Positions 1,402 through 8,804 of a stretch of DNA of 64,000 bases are shown piece after piece. Under the pieces are notes generated by a model. It had not been told where the DNA came from and searched no databases. It saw nothing but the letters and a program-made list of their open reading frames with translations. Position 1 is the first letter of the stretch. Each line of letters opens with the position of its first letter. The stretch comes from an uncultured Dokdonia sp. (GTDB lineage: Bacteria; Bacteroidota; Bacteroidia; Flavobacteriales; Flavobacteriaceae). The DNA is taken from contig NZ_CANLNH010000007.1 in NCBI RefSeq assembly GCF_947492535.1, positions 1 to 64,000 of the forward strand. The letters are read 5' to 3'. The position numbers were made by a program, and so were the translations under genes.

Positions 1402-2787
1402 TCATTTTGGATTTATTGTTTTTTCTCCTACTGTTCCGTACCATTTTGCAATGGTATTTTCGGCAGGTTTAAAACGCGGTGTAAAGTCTACATTGGTTTT
1501 TGCTCCTTCAGCAGTTGTTCGAGTATGCCATTGCCAAATATAGCATCCTGCAAACCAAGGTTCATTCCATAATTTTTGAAACATCGCTTCATAGGCACGT
1601 TGTTGGGTTTGATCAGATTTTTTCTTGGTGAGCGCTCCTGTTACTGCGCCCCATTCCCAAGGAGCAATCGTTGCTGCATCATCACTTCGATACCCAATTT
1701 CTGTAAATAAAATTGGCATATCATACTGTGATGATGCTTTCTTTAAGGCTGTTATATGTGTATCCCAACCTGCTTTAATCGTTTCTAAATCAGGATTTCT
1801 ATTGGTTGTTAAAGGAAAATATGCTTGTACGCCTATATAATCGAGTTCCTTCCAAAACGGAATACGTTCTATAGGGTCGTCCCAATTGGAAGCATACGTC
1901 AACTGTCCAGTATATATTTCTTTAATCTTTTTTATAAATGGAATCCACACATCAGGTTGATGCTGAATGGCTGTTCGTAATTCTGTACCTATACAAAATA
2001 AAGGGACGTCCATTTTTGCTGCCATACGGGCATATTGTAACATGCGCTCCTCATAACTCTTAAACCATATATCCCAATCTTCCTGAGAAAGTTGAATATT
2101 AGAACGCCACCCTTCACGTAACCAAATATGCGGTTTTAAATGTACGCTGATTTCCTTTTCTTGTAGTCTTCTAATATGTTTCATCGTTACAGAATCCCGA
2201 CGAGACCAAACGTCGGGAATTACCTTACCTTCTATTTTATTTGTGGTTTCATTTTTCTGATCTATAAACGGAATCACAGTAGCCCACTCAATATTATCTT
2301 TTATAAGGTCTTTTGTTGCTTTCTGCACATCTTCTTGATCATACGACCAGAAAACACTCATCCCTCTATGTTTTCCATCTATTTCGTAGCGATTTGTCGC
2401 TTTCTCAGATGTATTTTCTATACTATAATCCCAATCATAATTAAAGAACTCAGTACTATTAAAAGAGATAATCCCTTTAATACTTATATAGATCACAAAA
2501 ATTGGGATCACAAGTGAGAAGCTAAATCGTTTAAGTGCTAACGTCCATCCTCTTTTTTTAAATCCCCGTACTGCATATCGTATGATAACAAATAGTACAT
2601 AAACGAGTAAAAAGAATATATGGAATCCAATAAGAAATCGTGATGTAGGTACAAATACGCCTAGCATTTTGATGGCTTCTACAAAAGAAACCTTAGCTCT
2701 CCATATGCCTATACAATAGAATAGCAAAAATATGCCCCAAGTACTTAGGTACAGTTTTAAAAGAATACGAAGTGTTTTCTTAAACAT
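1402..2787 (-). CDS. Membrane-anchored GH113-like glycoside hydrolase
   Basis: The 461-residue protein has three hydrophobic segments (about 8-28, 52-72 and 88-108) and then an extracytoplasmic TIM-barrel-like domain from about residue 140. Motifs resembling glycoside hydrolase family 113 (beta-mannanases) are visible: FCIGTEL with Glu269 as candidate acid/base, GVQAYFPL, and ILFTEIGYRS with Glu363 as candidate nucleophile. Aromatic residues (WLREGWRS, YIWQWH) could line a sugar site. A role in mannan or glycan hydrolysis at the envelope is inferred from family only. The three N-terminal helices are unusual for the family. It sits alone between ychF and the hydrolase at 2849, on the same strand. 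Confidence 0.75.
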   Translation of the reverse strand: MFKKTLRILLKLYLSTWGIFLLFYCIGIWRAKVSFVEAIKMLGVFVPTSRFLIGFHIFFLLVYVLFVIIRYAVRGFKKRGWTLALKRFSFSLVIPIFVIYISIKGIISFNSTEFFNYDWDYSIENTSEKATNRYEIDGKHRGMSVFWSYDQEDVQKATKDLIKDNIEWATVIPFIDQKNETTNKIEGKVIPDVWSRRDSVTMKHIRRLQEKEISVHLKPHIWLREGWRSNIQLSQEDWDIWFKSYEERMLQYARMAAKMDVPLFCIGTELRTAIQHQPDVWIPFIKKIKEIYTGQLTYASNWDDPIERIPFWKELDYIGVQAYFPLTTNRNPDLETIKAGWDTHITALKKASSQYDMPILFTEIGYRSDDAATIAPWEWGAVTGALTKKKSDQTQQRAYEAMFQKLWNEPWFAGCYIWQWHTRTTAEGAKTNVDFTPRFKPAENTIAKWYGTVGEKTINPK

Positions 2788-2848
2788 AAGGAAGCTATCT
2801 AAAAAGGACTACTACCTCTTAGAAGCGTATCCTATATAATTGTTACAA

Positions 2849-3679
2849 TTATTTTTCTTTTTTAAGAACGCGATCTATTGCCGTTGTATACTCTGGAAAT
2901 GTCACAAGATCATTGTGACCTCCACTAGGAACGGTTATAAATTCTTTAGACGATGTTGCTATTTTTTCAAATAACTTCTGCCCATGTTCATAAGCAACTA
3001 CGGCATCATCAGTACCGTGAAAAACAGTAATAGGGCAAGAAACAGCATCTACAAATTCATATGTAGGCATCCTGTATTTTAATAATCGTTTTACAGGAAG
3101 CCATCTAAAACGCGAACGTGCCTCATCTTCGATACTATAAAACGGTGTTTCTAACGTAAGGTTTTTAGGGGTATGTTTACTTGCTACATAGGTAGCGAAA
3201 GTGGTCCCTAAGCTTCTCCCATATACATGAATTTGGGATTCGGGATAGTTCGCTTTCGCGAAAGCGTACCAAACCTCACTATCATCATACAAGGCTTGTT
3301 CTGGATTTGAAGTAGTTATGCTCGCATCACTTTTCCCATAATTACGATAATCCATTACAATTACTGAATATCCTTTTTGACTGAAAAACTGCGTAATCTC
3401 CCCCCAACGACGCACACTACCTGCATTTCCATGAAAATAAAGAATAACACCTTTAGCATTTGCTACAGGAAAATGGAGTCCGTGAAGTTGCACTCCTCCT
3501 TCTCCTTCTTGGTATATTTCTTCAAAAGGAACATCAAATTCAAAAACATAGTCTTTGGGTAATTGTTCGGGATGAAAAAGCATACTCTCTTGAAAAAAGT
3601 ATAATCCGCCACATAAAATTCCATAAAGATTTCCCAAAATAAACAGGAGGATTGCTCCTCTTTTTAGTGTACGCTTCAT
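2849..3679 (-). CDS. Membrane-anchored alpha/beta hydrolase (copy 1)
   Basis: This 276-residue serine hydrolase has one N-terminal hydrophobic anchor (about 8-30), so the catalytic domain probably faces the periplasm. The oxyanion-loop motif YFHGNAG is followed by the nucleophile elbow YGRSLGTT (Ser156), the acid in HGTDD (Asp224 or Asp225) and the base in GGHND (His255). The order and length resemble BEM46/ABHD13-like hydrolases. It is paralogous to the protein at 4552-5421, sharing LHF, MDYR, YGRSLG, KYxxPTY and HGTDD blocks. It lies downstream of a cysteine-rich leader-peptide gene with a terminator between them. The substrate cannot be told from sequence. Confidence 0.85.
   Translation of the reverse strand: MKRTLKRGAILLFILGNLYGILCGGLYFFQESMLFHPEQLPKDYVFEFDVPFEEIYQEGEGGVQLHGLHFPVANAKGVILYFHGNAGSVRRWGEITQFFSQKGYSVIVMDYRNYGKSDASITTSNPEQALYDDSEVWYAFAKANYPESQIHVYGRSLGTTFATYVASKHTPKNLTLETPFYSIEDEARSRFRWLPVKRLLKYRMPTYEFVDAVSCPITVFHGTDDAVVAYEHGQKLFEKIATSSKEFITVPSGGHNDLVTFPEYTTAIDRVLKKEK
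3251..3266. repeat. CGCTTTCGCGAAAGCG palindrome inside a gene
   Basis: A perfect 16-bp copy of the window's commonest palindrome, here inside the coding sequence of the hydrolase at 2849-3679, so the motif is tolerated in coding DNA. Confidence 0.95.
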
Positions 3680-3729
3680 TGCATAGGTTTATAATGAGAC
3701 AAAGTAACTGTTTTTAATAGGAATAAAAA

Positions 3730-3767
3730 AAACACCTAAGTATATAAGAGCATAAACTTAGGTGTTT
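3730..3767 (-). terminator. Terminator between peptide gene and hydrolase
   Basis: A 12-bp perfect stem (3730-3741 with 3756-3767) has a 14-nt loop. On the minus strand the stem is followed by a T-run (the A-run at 3724-3730), so it should end transcripts of the small peptide gene at 3825-4031 before the hydrolase. The gap thus separates the two genes transcriptionally at least in part. Confidence 0.7.
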
Positions 3768-3824
3768 CTTAATCTGATACAGTATATAAACTGTGTGTGG
3801 TTTTATTTACATACTGTTTTAAAA

Positions 3825-4031
3825 TTATCCTCCAAATCCATCACATGCTAACACGTCAAAAACGCATAAACCTACGCTCTGTACACAGGCAAAGATGCAA
3901 CCTACGGGAAATACACCTGCACAATCTGCATCAGAGTTACAGGTTGTTAATCCCATACCTCCACCTACTGACAACTGTTCTTTTTTGCTCAACTTTTGAG
4001 CACCTTTTACATTTGAAATCTTTTTTAACAT
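3825..4031 (-). CDS. Cys-rich peptide with double-glycine-type leader
   Basis: The 68-residue peptide begins with a Bacteroidota bacteriocin-type leader: hydrophobic start MLKKI, then Leu14, Lys16, Glu18-Gln19 and a Gly-Gly-Gly at 23-25 where a C39-peptidase exporter would cut. The core after Gly24/25 is rich in Gly, Val and Phe and has six cysteines (31, 37, 45, 49, 56, 63), enough for three disulfides or other cross-links; it ends GFGG. It has its own terminator and is followed by a membrane alpha/beta hydrolase. No exporter or modification enzyme is in the window. Leader class is well supported; whether the product is a bacteriocin, signal or other secreted peptide is unknown. Confidence 0.75.
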   Translation of the reverse strand: MLKKISNVKGAQKLSKKEQLSVGGGMGLTTCNSDADCAGVFPVGCIFACVQSVGLCVFDVLACDGFGG

Positions 4032-4304
4032 TATTTATCTATTTTAAATGACACATTCCTCTGATCAGTTTAAGACAGTCAAAGAATCTGTCTAACAAAC
4101 TAGTTTTGTATGATTTAAATGTAGATTCATTTATATGGATTTACAAAGAAACTATTCCAGTTTTCATGAATATCGATAAAGTAAAAAGTGTCCCCACAAA
4201 AACTTACTATTAGAAGGCTATTTAAATTTGTAACTAATTAAAATAGAATACTTATAGATCAATTACTATTTAATATTTAATTGATGATTTATATAATTTT
4301 GTTA

Positions 4305-4453
4305 ACCCGTTGTGCATTTTGAATAGATTTCTTGATTTTTCCCCTCCCTGAAGGGTGAATCGAAGAAATCTTTAGTACTTCCTTTAGGATTTGAGGGAAA
4401 TAATGAAGATTGATAGGATACTATCACAGTTGTTTTGTCAAAATGCACAACAG
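4305..4453. repeat. MITE-like structured repeat, copy A
   Basis: About 149 bp bounded by inverted ends (CCGTTGTGCATTTTGA on the left and its near-complement on the right, perfect over 14 bp). Inside are a hairpin (4325-4337 with 4358-4371, one bulged G) whose loop carries CCCTGAAGGG, and CCTTTAGGATTTGAGG. Copy B at 14171-14322 shares ends, length and internal motifs while its hairpin stem differs by compensating changes. No coding capacity is visible. The rest of 4032-4551 shows no gene; the leader region of the peptide gene is at its left end. Confidence 0.8.
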
Positions 4454-4551
4454 ATTTTATTAGTAATGTTTCAAGAAAAGTAGTCTACACTAAATGATGT
4501 AATAACATGATTTATTAGTATAGAAAATAAAAGGTGTTGTATCTATACTAC

Positions 4552-5421
4552 CTACGCATTCTTACGCTTTGTATTATGAATTACGTTGAAGCTAGAGCCT
4601 TCCAAATCGATTTCTTTTGGTGTAGAATTAAGAATTTCGGTAAGCATTTTATGATAACTCTCAAAGTTATTGAGGTTTTTATGCCCGCCCCCAATGATGG
4701 TGTACATTTTAGTTAACTTAGGTTTCACTTTAGAAAGTTTCACACTCGTTTTATAGGGAATCAATTTATCATCGGTACCATGAATAATATGGATAGGACA
4801 TTGTACATATTTAAGCCACTTGTAGGTAGGTAACGGATATTTAATCAATAAAGACAGAGGCATAAACGGCGCATAGCGTGCCGTTACTTTGGTAAGACTA
4901 TAATAGGGAGCATCAAGAATAAGCATCCTCGGATTATTTACAGAGGCAATTTTGGTAGCAAGTCCAGATCCCAAACTACGTCCATAGAGGATAATATGTT
5001 TTTCATCTACGTGTTCTTTTAATTTATTATAAATTACTTGTAGATCTCTTTTCAATGCTTTCTGATTACGACGTCCTGTACTTTTTCCAAAACCTCGGTA
5101 ATCCATCATCACAACATCATAGCCATTACGCGTAAAATCTACGGCAAATTTTCCCCATCCTTTAATGCTTTTAGAATTTCCTTTGAGATACAACACAACG
5201 CCCTTAGGTTTTTTAACCTTAAAATGGAGTCCATTCAGTTGTGCACCGTCTCTTGTCTCTATGGTATATTCATCTACTTCTTGATTTTCATAAAAGAATT
5301 GAAAATCAGCAGGTAGTTTTTCTGGTTTAAATAAGAAATAGTCTTGTAAATAATATAATAATATACTTATAACAATGTATAATATAATTAAAGTAATACC
5401 TACAACTATTAATTGTTTCAT
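4552..5421 (-). CDS. Membrane-anchored alpha/beta hydrolase (copy 2)
   Basis: This 289-residue paralogue of the hydrolase at 2849-3679 has an N-terminal hydrophobic anchor (about 4-24), nucleophile elbow YGRSLGSG (Ser149), HGTDD acid (Asp217 or Asp218) and GGGHKN base (His247). The oxyanion-loop HG of copy 1 (YFHGNAG) is replaced by Lys-Gly (YLKGNS), which may change activity. The C-terminal tail is about 20 residues longer and polar. It starts 53 bp after the stop of a cysteine-rich leader-peptide gene, with a terminator hairpin in the gap. Substrate unknown; family assignment is firm. Confidence 0.85.
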   Translation of the reverse strand: MKQLIVVGITLIILYIVISILLYYLQDYFLFKPEKLPADFQFFYENQEVDEYTIETRDGAQLNGLHFKVKKPKGVVLYLKGNSKSIKGWGKFAVDFTRNGYDVVMMDYRGFGKSTGRRNQKALKRDLQVIYNKLKEHVDEKHIILYGRSLGSGLATKIASVNNPRMLILDAPYYSLTKVTARYAPFMPLSLLIKYPLPTYKWLKYVQCPIHIIHGTDDKLIPYKTSVKLSKVKPKLTKMYTIIGGGHKNLNNFESYHKMLTEILNSTPKEIDLEGSSFNVIHNTKRKNA

Positions 5422-5443
5422 TATACTAAAGTAATGAAAAAAG

Positions 5444-5467
5444 AAAAGCGAGTCGTAACTCGCTTTT
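5444..5467 (-). terminator. Terminator after the 46-residue peptide gene
   Basis: A 10-bp perfect stem (5444-5453 with 5458-5467) closes a CGTA loop. On the minus strand it begins 7 nt after the peptide stop codon and is followed by a T-rich run, 22 nt before the hydrolase start. It may act as an attenuator between the two genes, giving more peptide than hydrolase transcript. Confidence 0.7.
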
Positions 5468-5474
5468 AAACTTC

Positions 5475-5615
5475 TTAATTAACACAACAACACCTAGGGT
5501 TTGTATTAAGATAACAAAAACAAGCATAGCAAGGAAGGGAAGCTCCATTAATAGTTTCTTGTTCTTCTTTTTCTAATTCTTTAATTCTGCTGATTTTTAA
5601 AATATCATTTAGCAT
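5475..5615 (-). CDS. Second Cys-rich leader-type peptide, 46 residues
   Basis: A short gene read by eye: ATG at 5613-5615, stop TAA at 5475-5477. The leader aligns without gaps to that of the peptide at 3825-4031: Met-Leu start, Ile5, Leu14, Lys16, Glu18-Gln19, and Gly24-Ala25 (NGA) as the Gly-Gly-type cleavage site. The 21-residue core after residue 25 has six cysteines, spaced C29, C32, C34 and a CCC triplet at 42-44, which is dense for its size. A perfect -7 box lies about 35 bp upstream and a terminator directly downstream. Next gene is the paralogous hydrolase. Real gene very likely; function (bacteriocin, pheromone, metal-binding peptide) unknown. Confidence 0.7.
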   Translation of the reverse strand: MLNDILKISRIKELEKEEQETINGASLPCYACFCYLNTNPRCCCVN

Positions 5616-5649
5616 ATTAATAAAAATTTATAGTTAATACTCTATATTA

Positions 5650-5657
5650 CAAACATA
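5650..5657 (-). promoter_or_regulatory. Candidate -7 box for the 46-residue peptide gene
   Basis: On the minus strand this reads TATGTTTG, matching TAnnTTTG, about 35 bp before the ATG at 5615; no TTTG at the ideal -33 spacing was seen. The remainder of the 5616-5927 gap is AT-rich and holds one TTTCGCGAAA core at 5784-5793 between the divergent peptide and M16 peptidase genes. Confidence 0.45.
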
Positions 5658-5927
5658 TAACTCAATTTTATGTTTTATTATTATAATTAAGCAAAAAATT
5701 AACACATTAGTTATCAGACATATAACAATTTGACAAGTTTAAAATATCATATATAGGTTAAGAATCTTTTTGATTTTTTACGCTTTCGCGAAAAGTAAAT
5801 AAGGCATCATTAATTCTTTCAAAAAATGCCTGTAACCCCTTACAAACGTTAAATTCTTTAACACAAAACCCCTTTTATACACAAAGAGAGTATCGTACCT
5901 TGTAGGCTTCTTAATAAATAAAAAAAA

Positions 5928-8804
5928 ATGACTTTACAAAAATCTTTACGACTAGCGTTTATGGGTCTCATATGCTCTGGTTTTTTTATTGCTTGTACAG
6001 ATGAAAGTAGCTCTAATGGTAGTAATGCCGAAGATAGCGCTTCTCTTTCTGTAGATTATGAAAAATATGAACTAGAAAATGGACTTGATGTCATTTTACA
6101 TCAAGATAAAAGTGATCCTATTGTTTCTTTAGCGATCCAATATGGTGTAGGATCTAATCGTGAAAAAACAGGACGTACAGGATTTGCGCATCTTTTTGAA
6201 CATATGTTATTTCAAGAGTCTGAAAATGTACCACAAGATCAGTTCTTTAAAAAGATACAAGATGCTGGAGGTACACTTAATGGAGGTACTTGGAAAGATG
6301 GTACTATCTATTATGAAGTTGTTCCAAATAATGCTATGGAAATGGTGATGTGGTTAGAAAGTGACCGTATGGGATACCTTATTAACACGGTAACAGAATC
6401 TGCATTTTACAATCAACAAGAGGTTGTTCAAAATGAAAAGCGTCAGCGTGTAGATAATAACCCTTACGGACATACAAACTGGGTGTTAGATAAAAATATC
6501 TACCCAGAAGGTCATCCTTATAATTGGCAAGTCATTGGAGAGTTAGTAGATCTTCAGAATGCAACTATCGATGATGTAAAAGAATTTTACGCAAAATACT
6601 ACGGTCCTAACAATGCAACGTTAGTACTTGCTGGAGACTTCGAAACAGAAGAAGCAAAAGCAATGATTGAGAAGTATTTTGGCGAAATCAAAAAAGGACA
6701 AGACGTTCCTAAACTAAAGCCACAACGTGTTACACTTGCTGAAACAAAGAAATTGTACCACGAAGATAATTTCGCGCAAGCGCCACAATTACATATGGTT
6801 TGGCCAACACTTGAGCAATATACTGATGATGCGTATGCATTAGATTTTCTAGCAGAAATCCTTTCTGACGGAAAAGAAGCACCTATTTATGAAGTGCTCA
6901 CAAAAGAGAAGGAATTAACGTCAAATGCATTTGCATATAACAATTCGCAAGAATTAGCTGGAGAATTTCATATTATCGTAACTGCGAGTGCAGGAAAAGA
7001 TCTTGACGACGTAGAGACTGGAATTTTTGAAGCAATGCAACGTTTTGAAACTAATGGTATTCCTGAAGGGGATGTAGATCGTATCAAGGCAAGTTTAGAA
7101 ACAGATTTCTATAATGGCATCAGTAGTGTATTAGGTAAATCATTCCAAATGGCACAATACAATGTATTTGCAGGAGAGCCTAGTTTTATCGAGCAAGATA
7201 TTGAGAATATCAAAAAAGTAACCGAGGCAGATATCATGCGTGTATATAACAAATACATTAAAGACAAGCCGTATGTATTAACCAGTTTTGTACCTAAAGG
7301 ACAATTAGACTTGATTGTTGAAAATTCTAAAAAAGCACCTATTGTAGAGGAAGCTATTACAGAAAATGTAACTAAAGAAGTAAAAGATGCAGCAACTGAA
7401 GTTGTAAAAACACCTTCAAATTTTGATCGCTCTGTAGAGCCTTCACAAGGACCTGCTCCTGCACTTAACATTCCTGATAGCTGGACAACAGAATTAGCTA
7501 ATGGAATGAAAGTATATGGTATTGAACAAAATGAAATACCTACGGTTAATTTTAACCTTGTTATTGAAGGAGGTCATTTACTAGACAGTAAAGATAAAAA
7601 TGGGGTAGCAAACCTTATGACAGATATCTTGATGGAAGGAACGGCTACTAAAACACCTGCAGAGTTAGAAAAAGCTATTCAAAGTCTTGGTGCGAGTATC
7701 CGAATGTTTACAGGACGTGAATCTATTGTAGTACAAGGAAATACACTTACACGTAATTTTGAAGCTACGATGGATCTTATTGAAGAAATTCTATTAGAAC
7801 CACGTTGGGATGAAGAAGAATTTGGACGTATCAAAATAGCTACCGTAAATGGAATTAAGCGTTCTAATGCTAATCCAAATGTTATTGCAAACAGAGTATA
7901 TACAAAAACATTGTATGGAGATGATCATATTTTCTCATACCCATCTAGCGGTACTGAAGCATCTGTAAATGCAATCACAATGAATGATTTAAAAGCATTT
8001 TATAATACAAATTTCTCTCCATCAGTAAGTAGATTTCATATTGTAGGAAAAATTAAGAAAGAGACTGCGTTAAATGCATTGAAAGATCTTGAATCAAAAT
8101 GGGCAGCAAAAGAAGTGACAATGCCTACTTATGAGATTCCTTCACAAAGAGGTAAATCATCTTTATTATTTGTAGATGTACCAAATGCAAAACAATCTGT
8201 AATTAGTATCGGAAATATAGGACTTGCGCGTACAGATAAAGATTTTTACCCTGCCGAAGTCATGAATTATAATTTAGGAGGCGCTTTTAATGGCGTTGTA
8301 AATAGAATTCTTCGTGAAGAAAAAGGGTATACATATGGCGCTCGTACTGGTTTTAGTGGAACAAAGATTCCTGGAACATTTACGGCTTCTTCTAGTGTAC
8401 GTACCAATACAACTGGAGAGTCTGTACAAATCTTTAAAGACGAGATTGCTCGTTATAAAGAAGGAATCACTGCAGAAGATCTTGAGTTTACTAAGAATGC
8501 CTTAATTAAGTCGAATGCGCGTCGTTTTGAAACACAAGGTGCATTATTAGGTATGCTACAAGAGATGAGTGCTTATGGCTTAGCTCCAGATTATATAGAA
8601 GGAGAAGAAGCTACCGTACGTAATATGACATTAGAGCAACACAAAGCGTTAGCAAACAAATATCTTGATGAGTCAAAAATGGCGTATCTCGTTGTTGGTG
8701 ATGCTGCGACACAATATGCACAGTTCCAAAAAATGGGATTTGATGAAGTAAAGTTATTAGACAAAGACGGTAACGAAACTGAATTAAAAGCAGTAAAGCA
8801 GTAA
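5928..8804 (+). CDS. M16 family metallopeptidase, two-domain lipoprotein
   Basis: The 958-residue zinc peptidase of the pitrilysin/insulinase class probably degrades peptides at the envelope. A lipoprotein signal ends at Cys23 (FFIAC), followed by a Ser/Asn-rich linker. The N-terminal M16 half carries the inverted zinc motif HLFEH (His88, Glu91, His92), with the third ligand likely Glu165 or Glu170 in the NQQEVVQNE stretch. The second half (about 510-940) repeats the fold without the HxxEH motif, the usual inactive half that closes the chamber. Length fits the two-domain family. It is monocistronic: divergent upstream gene, strong terminator downstream. Confidence 0.93.
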   Translation: MTLQKSLRLAFMGLICSGFFIACTDESSSNGSNAEDSASLSVDYEKYELENGLDVILHQDKSDPIVSLAIQYGVGSNREKTGRTGFAHLFEHMLFQESENVPQDQFFKKIQDAGGTLNGGTWKDGTIYYEVVPNNAMEMVMWLESDRMGYLINTVTESAFYNQQEVVQNEKRQRVDNNPYGHTNWVLDKNIYPEGHPYNWQVIGELVDLQNATIDDVKEFYAKYYGPNNATLVLAGDFETEEAKAMIEKYFGEIKKGQDVPKLKPQRVTLAETKKLYHEDNFAQAPQLHMVWPTLEQYTDDAYALDFLAEILSDGKEAPIYEVLTKEKELTSNAFAYNNSQELAGEFHIIVTASAGKDLDDVETGIFEAMQRFETNGIPEGDVDRIKASLETDFYNGISSVLGKSFQMAQYNVFAGEPSFIEQDIENIKKVTEADIMRVYNKYIKDKPYVLTSFVPKGQLDLIVENSKKAPIVEEAITENVTKEVKDAATEVVKTPSNFDRSVEPSQGPAPALNIPDSWTTELANGMKVYGIEQNEIPTVNFNLVIEGGHLLDSKDKNGVANLMTDILMEGTATKTPAELEKAIQSLGASIRMFTGRESIVVQGNTLTRNFEATMDLIEEILLEPRWDEEEFGRIKIATVNGIKRSNANPNVIANRVYTKTLYGDDHIFSYPSSGTEASVNAITMNDLKAFYNTNFSPSVSRFHIVGKIKKETALNALKDLESKWAAKEVTMPTYEIPSQRGKSSLLFVDVPNAKQSVISIGNIGLARTDKDFYPAEVMNYNLGGAFNGVVNRILREEKGYTYGARTGFSGTKIPGTFTASSSVRTNTTGESVQIFKDEIARYKEGITAEDLEFTKNALIKSNARRFETQGALLGMLQEMSAYGLAPDYIEGEEATVRNMTLEQHKALANKYLDESKMAYLVVGDAATQYAQFQKMGFDEVKLLDKDGNETELKAVKQ

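What the first reader, a model, noticed from the sequence alone, without database searches (positions are those of the whole stretch)
3825..5615. Two tandem units of Cys-rich leader peptide plus membrane alpha/beta hydrolase
Reading the minus strand gives peptide (5475-5615), hydrolase (4552-5421), peptide (3825-4031), hydrolase (2849-3679). Both peptides have leaders aligning without gaps (Leu14, Lys16, Glu18-Gln19, Gly24) and six core cysteines; both hydrolases are paralogues. Two parallel pairs suggest duplication of a module rather than chance neighbours. Double-glycine leaders of this style are known in Bacteroidota; coupling to ABHD13/BEM46-like hydrolases is not one I recognise. The hydrolase could process, modify or give immunity to the peptide (inference).
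Basis: partly seen in the sequence, partly recalled or inferred. Interest (0 to 1): 0.75.

Follow-up and report, generated by a model that had tools for sequence, protein, structure and literature searches.

The report
Secreted-peptide genes with a shared RNA knot
The two small cysteine-rich peptides are not part of a hydrolase module: they belong to a set of about 45 similar export peptides scattered through this marine bacterium's genome, and a good part of them share a conserved, apparently undescribed knotted RNA just ahead of the gene, which suggests joint control of a large peptide arsenal.

Summary
The four genes exist as described, but the "peptide + hydrolase module" reading fails. 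hydA and hydB are an old tandem pair: 79 of 80 hydA loci from named genomes have a partner just downstream, 76 of them with a gap of 68 bp or less. The three long gaps are Dokdonia loci, and these are the only three of the 80 with leader peptides. P1 (3825-4031) sits between hydA and hydB in four Dokdonia genomes; P2 (5475-5615) was found at this place only here. The pair is older, so no module was duplicated.

The peptides belong to a genome-wide family of about 45 double-glycine-leader, mostly cysteine-rich peptides. Only the two in the window lie beside hydA/hydB homologues. Across genomes the family tracks VKOR genes; here these are C39-like/VKOR/thioredoxin fusions without the catalytic Cys and His.

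Upstream of P1 (4055-4095) and of 19 of the 45 genes in all lies a ~36-nt element predicted to form an H-type pseudoknot, with strong compensatory changes. It occurs in 31 of 237 Flavobacteriaceae genera sampled; P1's copy matches nothing relevant in Rfam 15. Most likely a cis-regulatory RNA; signal, mechanism and peptide activity are unknown.

The parts
3825..4031 (-). P1: double-glycine leader peptide, 68 aa, six-Cys core
   Evidence: orthologues between hydA and hydB in G011 (Dokdonia pacifica), G007, G015
4055..4095 (-). pseudoknot element (~36 nt plus 3-nt flanks) upstream of P1: AGACAG/CTGTCT interleaved with TCTTTGA/TCAGAGG; the stretch ends 23 nt before the P1 ATG
   Evidence: hit of model R1 at E 3.0e-6 (this site is one of the 43 training sites)
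3725..3766 (-). inverted repeat followed by a T run after P1; terminator-like by eye, loop too long for the scan
   Evidence: read from the sequence, positions
5475..5615 (-). P2: leader peptide ending Gly-Ala, 46 aa, six-Cys core; no R1 match upstream; at this place only in this genome; 61% identical paralogue at G000:C9:41998
5444..5467 (-). terminator-like hairpin directly after P2
   Evidence: 10 pairs; 7 such sites found in 2700-6000 against 1.5 expected
4552..5421 (-). hydA: alpha/beta hydrolase with N-terminal hydrophobic segment (by eye); first gene of an old hydA-hydB tandem, not part of the peptide system
2849..3679 (-). hydB: paralogue of hydA, second gene of the old tandem

Best explanation
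P1 and P2 are two members of a dispersed family of about 45 ribosomal precursor peptides in this Dokdonia genome. A conserved 25-residue leader (MLKxIxNLxGxxxLxKxEQKxIxGG) precedes a variable, mostly Cys-rich core. P1 entered the gap between two older, tightly packed hydrolase genes in an ancestor of four Dokdonia species; P2 most simply entered ahead of hydA in this lineage alone (from gene-order comparison). Inferred: unlinked C39 ABC exporters cleave the leader and export the core; membrane C39-like/VKOR/thioredoxin proteins, whose C39-like domain lacks the catalytic Cys and His and could only bind the leader, oxidise core cysteines; the products act on competitors or as signals. P1 and 18 other family genes here carry upstream a conserved element predicted to fold as an H-type pseudoknot (supported by compensatory changes) at a near-fixed distance before the start codon. 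It most likely lies in the mRNA and controls its translation or stability, and so ties part of the scattered genes into one regulon (inferred). The hydrolases are bystanders.
For: Family: 45 leader matches in G000 at E<=0.01; 45 ORFs in the fetched loci, 42 with at least four Cys. Bystander hydrolases. Over 118 genomes, leader matches in 14 of 17 genomes with VKOR and 5 of 101 without; outside the genus 7 of 10 and 3 of 90. For hydA outside the genus: 3 of 15 and 7 of 85, p 0.17. Three C39-like/VKOR/Trx genes lie beside clusters of 2, 4 and 3 leader peptides; catalytic Cys and His absent. Pseudoknot: 43 training sites, 10 of 13 pairs with changes on both sides, 89.3% paired against 24.8-48.1% when slid. 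67 sites found with a model whose only base pairs are those of the first stem (65 not training sites): 12 of 13 pairs, 89.6% against 26.0-42.0%. 32 sites in loci of 27 further genomes: 6 of 13 pairs, 34 cells changed on both sides against 12.3 in shuffles, 91.1% against 23.8-56.1%. Gene context: 19 of 21 G000 sites (18 of the 19 are training sites) and 22 of 24 G011 sites, 47 of 67 and 26 of 32 directly precede a leader ORF or leader match.
Against: No expression, secretion, disulfide or activity data exist. 26 of the 45 family genes here, P2 among them, have no R1 match, so the element is not universal. No promoter consensus was found at a fixed distance upstream of the element, so whether it lies in the transcript is not shown. 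In the A5 set two of five measures do not beat the shuffles (63/500 and 85/500). 20 of the 45 peptides have an odd number of Cys, so not all Cys can be paired within one peptide. A split lantibiotic dehydratase sits beside one C39 exporter, so thioether modification of some members is possible. The first 43 sites were chosen partly by complementarity. Leader profile and R1 were built mostly from Dokdonia, so absence elsewhere may be lack of sensitivity; the second stem's sequence, though not its pairing, is in R1. The VKOR count is by domain; the fusion with C39 was checked by Pfam only in G000. hydA and leader peptides are associated over all 118 genomes (p 0.003), through the genus.
Confidence: 0.73

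Rival explanations
1. First reader's module: each hydrolase processes, modifies or gives immunity to its neighbouring peptide, and the pair was duplicated.
For: The adjacency itself; P1 and its place between hydA and hydB are kept in four Dokdonia genomes.
Against: hydA loci without leader peptides in 77 of 80 cases; the other 43 leader peptides in this genome have no such hydrolase as next gene; P1 and P2 differ in distribution; hydA presence does not predict leader peptides outside the genus (3 of 15 against 7 of 85).
Confidence: 0.04
2. The element is a DNA operator or promoter part bound by a regulator, for example the TPR/AraC-type regulators found at three leader-peptide loci, not an RNA.
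For: Interleaved inverted repeats also exist in duplex DNA; four TPR+HTH_18 proteins recur as neighbours; no fixed promoter was found upstream of the element.
Against: Arms change in a compensatory way (UA, CG, GC at one pair; GACA/TGTC to GTCA/TGAC in G098 and G106), which duplex binding does not require; spacing to the ATG is narrow (18-32 nt).
Confidence: 0.2
3. The cores are modified by lanthionine or radical-SAM enzymes and not mainly by disulfide formation.
For: Split lantibiotic dehydratase next to one C39 exporter; 2 of 29 leaders weakly resemble TIGR04149, annotated as rSAM-modified (best E 0.0018); 20 of 45 peptides have an odd number of Cys.
Against: Leader matches track VKOR genes, and the three here, fused to C39-like and thioredoxin domains, are adjacent to peptides; the small peptides nearest the dehydratase are of another leader type by eye and are preceded by DUF805b RNAs.
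Confidence: 0.17
4. The element is part of a mobile or recombination site that spreads the peptide cassettes.
For: P1 and P2 appear as insertions in otherwise kept gene order.
Against: The inserted stretch is long and differs between the four species; the element has a near-fixed place relative to the ATG; P2 has no R1-type element.
Confidence: 0.04

Closest known systems
Double-glycine leader peptides exported by C39 PCAT transporters (Bacteroidales RiPP precursors and bacteroidetocins; PMC10352776, passages read)
   Same: leader ending in GG, small precursor, C39 exporter in the genome
   Different: about 45 dispersed genes in one genome, exporter not beside P1 and P2, mostly Cys-rich cores, VKOR-type proteins as companions
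NCBIfam TIGR04149, NF047792 (CCPGW putative bacteriocin), NF047798 (leader_Chryseo)
   Same: a few family members match weakly (2, 2 and 1 of 29 at E<=0.1)
   Different: P1 and P2 match none of them
Rfam RF02914 DUF805b RNA
   Same: short cis-regulatory RNA (35 positions); in these genomes also upstream of GG-type peptides (L016 twice, L013) and of a lipoprotein in G015 (G015 gene read); pseudoknot-like topology is my reading of its consensus
   Different: different sequence; no DUF805b match at the P1 element or at L114 even at E<=10
HlyB-type C39-like domains (recalled as catalytically dead, substrate-binding)
   Same: L019 VKOR fusion N-domain matches TIGR01846 weakly (E 0.0014, far below cut-off); catalytic Cys and His missing
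   Different: fused to VKOR and thioredoxin, not to an ABC transporter
Pfam PF12146/PF00561 alpha/beta hydrolases
   Same: hydA and hydB score far above the cut-off
   Different: solved relatives of hydA are distant (best E 9.6e-9 over residues 75-184); ABHD13/BEM46 assignment not tested

Membership tests
Double-glycine leader peptide | leader with conserved L/E-Q/G positions ending GG, GA or GS | tested here: met
   A2 profile E 2.5e-13 (P1) and 4e-12 (P2); P2 ends GA; both window leaders are rows of A2
Double-glycine leader peptide | C39 peptidase exporter in the genome | tested here: met
   two PCATs with C39, ABC membrane and ATPase domains
Double-glycine leader peptide | exporter in the same gene cluster as P1 and P2 | tested here: not met
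   C39 matches lie on C9, C1, C19 and C10; the window is the start of C7
Double-glycine leader peptide | cleavage after GG and secretion | not testable with these tools
   needs mass spectrometry
NCBIfam TIGR01847 bacteriocin signal | profile match | tested here: not met
   1 of 29 members at E 0.068; none for P1 or P2
Rfam RF02914 DUF805b | covariance model match at the P1 element | tested here: not met
   no match at E<=10 in 111 bases
H-type pseudoknot RNA | two interleaved helices supported by compensatory changes | tested here: met
   (in one search three of five measures exceed all shuffles)
H-type pseudoknot RNA | transcribed and folded in the cell | not testable with these tools
   needs RNA-seq and probing
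Riboswitch | direct ligand binding that changes expression | not testable with these tools
   no ligand data
Alpha/beta hydrolase (PF12146) | profile match over cut-off | tested here: met
   80.6 and 76.2 bits, cut-off 27
Peptide+hydrolase module | co-occurrence beyond this locus | tested here: not met

The most novel reading that the evidence does not exclude
The pseudoknot is a new class of very small riboswitch-like or protein-sensing RNA that coordinates dozens of unlinked secreted Cys-rich peptide genes across Flavobacteriaceae, so that one signal switches on much of a peptide arsenal whose leaders are then read by a dead C39-like domain fused to a disulfide-forming VKOR/thioredoxin enzyme.
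Probability: 0.3. Interest if true: 0.9.

Novelty: new variant of a known kind. Interest (0 to 1): 0.68.

Why it matters
Some Flavobacteriaceae genomes are dotted with small leader peptides that cluster-based mining would overlook because exporter and modifying enzymes lie elsewhere. A conserved RNA upstream gives a second, independent handle for finding them and says that scattered genes may be one regulon. A C39-like domain without its catalytic residues, fused to VKOR and thioredoxin, makes a testable proposal for how leader peptides could be directed to oxidative folding in Bacteroidota. It also shows that the hydrolase link would have been a false trail.

Tried and rejected
Module duplication was rejected. 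A search for recurring immunity-like neighbours of the 45 peptides (67 distinct flanking proteins) found C39-like/VKOR/Trx proteins, TPR/AraC regulators, one further weak pair (26% over 72 aa, E 6e-5) and the window hydrolase pair itself. A first pseudoknot scan with loose rules was too permissive (28 of 45 upstreams; shuffles mean 12.2, maximum 20; 36 of 156 long-ORF upstreams) and was replaced by site-level comparison and a covariance model. No promoter motif at a fixed distance upstream of the element was found. Rfam gave nothing relevant at the P1 element and nothing over threshold in the whole window. P1 cores evolve fast (18/43, 25/42, 20/43 identities with G011, G007, G015; hydA 94-96%, hydB 82-86%), but dS is near saturation, so no claim of positive selection. 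Paper searches listed no paper I could recognise as describing this element or a C39-VKOR peptide oxidase; of these only listings and abstract openings were seen, apart from passages of PMC10352776 and a term search in PMC4555120 that found no C39 or peptidase. The 2017 paper on 224 candidate RNAs, recalled as the source of DUF805b, is not held.

Full report
OBSERVATION. Both peptide leaders align without gaps, both cores have six Cys, and the two hydrolases are paralogues (37% over 273 aa) of the Hydrolase_4 type. Pfam and NCBIfam give no significant family for either peptide. The peptides are not chance ORFs: whole P1 finds 24 matches in its own genome at E<=10, its own gene included; in the loci then fetched, the 26-residue leader alone finds 24 further ORFs above the inclusion line (these loci had been chosen). 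A leader profile (alignment A2) finds 45 matches in the genome at E<=0.01. In the window it finds only P1 and P2 below E 0.1.

THE HYDROLASES ARE AN OLDER PAIR. In the 118 relatives searched, hydA orthologues (331 bits or more) occur in 24 genomes including this one, and in all 24 a hydB-like gene lies next to it on the same strand. In named genomes, the best 80 of 215 hydA relatives found were kept; 79 of the 80 have a tandem partner downstream, 76 with gaps between -16 and +68 bp (tblastn ends, so approximate), one (L143) shows no partner, and the three long gaps (714, 1040, 1482 bp) are three Dokdonia records, among them D. pacifica DSM 25597. Those three are also the only ones of the 80 with any leader hit at E<1 (up to 6 kb each side, less at contig ends). 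Sister Dokdonia genomes G014, G017, G001 and G012 have the hydA stop and the hydB start overlapping or touching, and G005 has them close. The peptide DNA was therefore gained inside an existing pair. P1 orthologues lie there in G011, G007 and G015; G011 has a second leader peptide beside it and G015 an extra lipoprotein gene. P2 is missing at this place in these three: the hydA-M16 gap is about 240 bp in G011 against 507 bp here, and no leader peptide is found there. P2's nearest relative found is elsewhere in this genome (C9:41998, 61% identity), with no hydrolase of this type beside it. The simplest account is two separate gains, not one duplicated module.

THE PEPTIDE FAMILY. Of the 45 leader matches two are fragments (C6:143743, C19:71092); the fetched loci hold 45 ORFs, two of which one search did not list. 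42 of the 45 contain four to seven Cys; 20 of 45 have an odd number. Cores are diverse; a recurring pattern is C-x-S/T-D-x-D-C, as in P1 (by eye). Leader matches per genome are 45-54 in four Dokdonia (G000, G007, G011, G015) and 0-6 in the other 14 genomes of the genus. P1 cores are far less conserved than the flanking genes: 18/43, 25/42 and 20/43 identical residues against 94-96% for hydA and 82-86% for hydB. Among 67 distinct proteins flanking the 45 peptides, the families that recur are C39-like/VKOR/thioredoxin proteins (three loci), TPR plus HTH_18 proteins (four proteins at three loci), one weak pair, and the window hydrolases themselves. hydA and hydB match no other flanking protein.

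EXPORT AND OXIDATION. The genome has two C39 ABC exporters, each next to an HlyD-like gene, one of them also beside a split lantibiotic dehydratase. Three further proteins of 533-540 aa combine a C39-like domain, VKOR and thioredoxin (in one of them, L020, the C39 match comes only); they lie beside clusters of 2, 4 and 3 leader peptides. In an alignment the C39-like domains of all three lack the catalytic Cys and the His that both exporters have; that they bind leaders is inference. Over 118 genomes, leader matches occur in 14 of 17 genomes with VKOR and 5 of 101 without; outside the genus 7 of 10 against 3 of 90. For any C39 the figures are 17 of 39 against 2 of 79. For hydA outside the genus they are 3 of 15 against 7 of 85, p 0.17; over all 118 the hydA figures are 9 of 24 against 10 of 94, p 0.003, through the genus. 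The VKOR count is by domain: in other genomes the VKOR frames are mostly 500-610 aa and several also carry a C39 match, but the fusion was checked by Pfam only here. Shared ancestry is not corrected for, and A2 comes mostly from Dokdonia.

THE UPSTREAM ELEMENT. Comparing upstream regions of the 45 genes showed a repeated ~36-nt stretch, for P1 at window 4055-4095: AGACAG ATT CTTTGA CTGTCT TAAACTGA TCAGAG. Two inverted repeats are interleaved, as in an H-type pseudoknot. A first loose scan was too permissive to be evidence. 43 aligned sites (A3; one of 44 dropped) give 89.3% standard pairs against 24.8-48.1% for slid partners, and 10 of 13 pairs changed on both sides; these sites had been picked partly for complementarity. 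I therefore built a model with base pairs for the first stem only (R1; the sequence of the second stem is still in it) and scanned 118 genomes. In 67 matches (two of them training sites), the full structure with the second stem gives 12 of 13 pairs with changes on both sides, 106 such cells against 32.8 in shuffles, and 89.6% paired against 26.0-42.0% when slid. Examples are GACA/TGTC replaced by GTCA/TGAC in G098 and G106 and GGATAC/GTATCC in G001. A third set of 32 sites in loci of 27 further Flavobacteriaceae genomes gives 91.1% against 23.8-56.1% and 34 cells against 12.3, although two of the five measures there do not exceed the shuffles (63 and 85 of 500). Sequences are related, so these are not counts of events.

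WHAT IT PRECEDES. In G000, 19 of 21 R1 sites end 19-26 nt before a leader ORF; one precedes a lipoprotein and one no ORF of 30 aa. Put the other way, 19 of the 45 leader ORFs have the element and 26, P2 among them, do not; 18 of the 19 were training sites. In G011, 22 of 24 sites directly precede a leader match. In one search, 47 of 67 sites have a leader ORF 18-27 nt after the match. Among the other 20, five precede GG-type leaders of other kinds by eye (L266, L259, L281, L216 twice), one runs off its contig inside a leader (L251), one precedes the lipoprotein (L264), one a secreted-looking protein about 110 nt downstream (L260), and several are weak matches without an ORF. In the cross-genus set 26 of 32 have a leader ORF; three more precede other GG-type leaders and three look like decayed leaders by eye. 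The element occurs in 37 of 397 genomes and 31 of 237 genera sampled across the family at E<=0.001; up to 16 sites were seen per genome, which is also the number of candidates scored per genome in that call. Rfam 15 has nothing relevant at the P1 site or at L114 at E<=10. A different family, DUF805b (RF02914), reaches its gathering score upstream of two other GG-type peptides in L016, upstream of the leader peptide in L013, and upstream of the G015 lipoprotein between hydA and P1. Exported peptides here thus seem to use at least two small RNA elements.

MECHANISM. Supported: conserved interleaved pairing, near-fixed distance to the start codon, and strong association with leader peptides. Inferred: it acts in the mRNA. 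With its 3' edge 18-32 nt before AUG it would sit at the upstream edge of the initiating ribosome, so control of initiation or of mRNA stability is most likely; whether a metabolite, a protein or nothing binds it is open. No promoter signature at a fixed upstream distance was seen, which leaves a DNA-level role possible. P2 and the other genes without an R1 match may be controlled otherwise.

VERDICT. The worthwhile result lies one step outside it: a dispersed Cys-rich leader-peptide family, part of which shares a conserved, apparently unlisted pseudoknot RNA.

Noticed in passing
window 3253, 9776, 14678, 18990, 24738, 36243, 53030, 57521, 62074: The palindrome CTTTCGCGAAAG occurs 9 times in 64 kb against 0 in 100 shuffles, also inside genes (one copy within hydB).
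   Followed up: no
L016 2281-2315 and 2653-2687 (-); L013 4572-4607 (-); L081 4769-4806 (-): DUF805b RNAs (RF02914) over the gathering score upstream of small GG-type peptides and a lipoprotein, so a second RNA element is linked to exported products (L081 gene read).
   Followed up: partly
L016:2778-4499, L204:5388-7115, L207:1769-3502, L207:4444-6174: TPR plus AraC-type HTH proteins of about 575 aa recur beside leader peptides at three loci; candidate regulators or sensors.
   Followed up: partly
L115 (G000:C9:140000-149000): Split lantibiotic dehydratase (separate N- and C-type proteins) next to a C39 exporter and an HlyD-like gene, a few kb from two small GG-type peptides in L016.
   Followed up: no
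L020:7704-9272: A CHAT-domain protein encoded right next to one C39-like/VKOR/Trx gene and its leader peptides.
   Followed up: no
L265 (G000:C19:70337), L288, L303, L304: Pseudoknot elements left without an intact peptide or followed by decayed leader frames (by eye), suggesting turnover of the peptide genes.
   Followed up: no
L114 3867-3988 (-) and 6676-6735 (+): SAM and SAM-II riboswitches over their gathering scores lie on either side of the leader peptide at L114:4598-4774.
   Followed up: no
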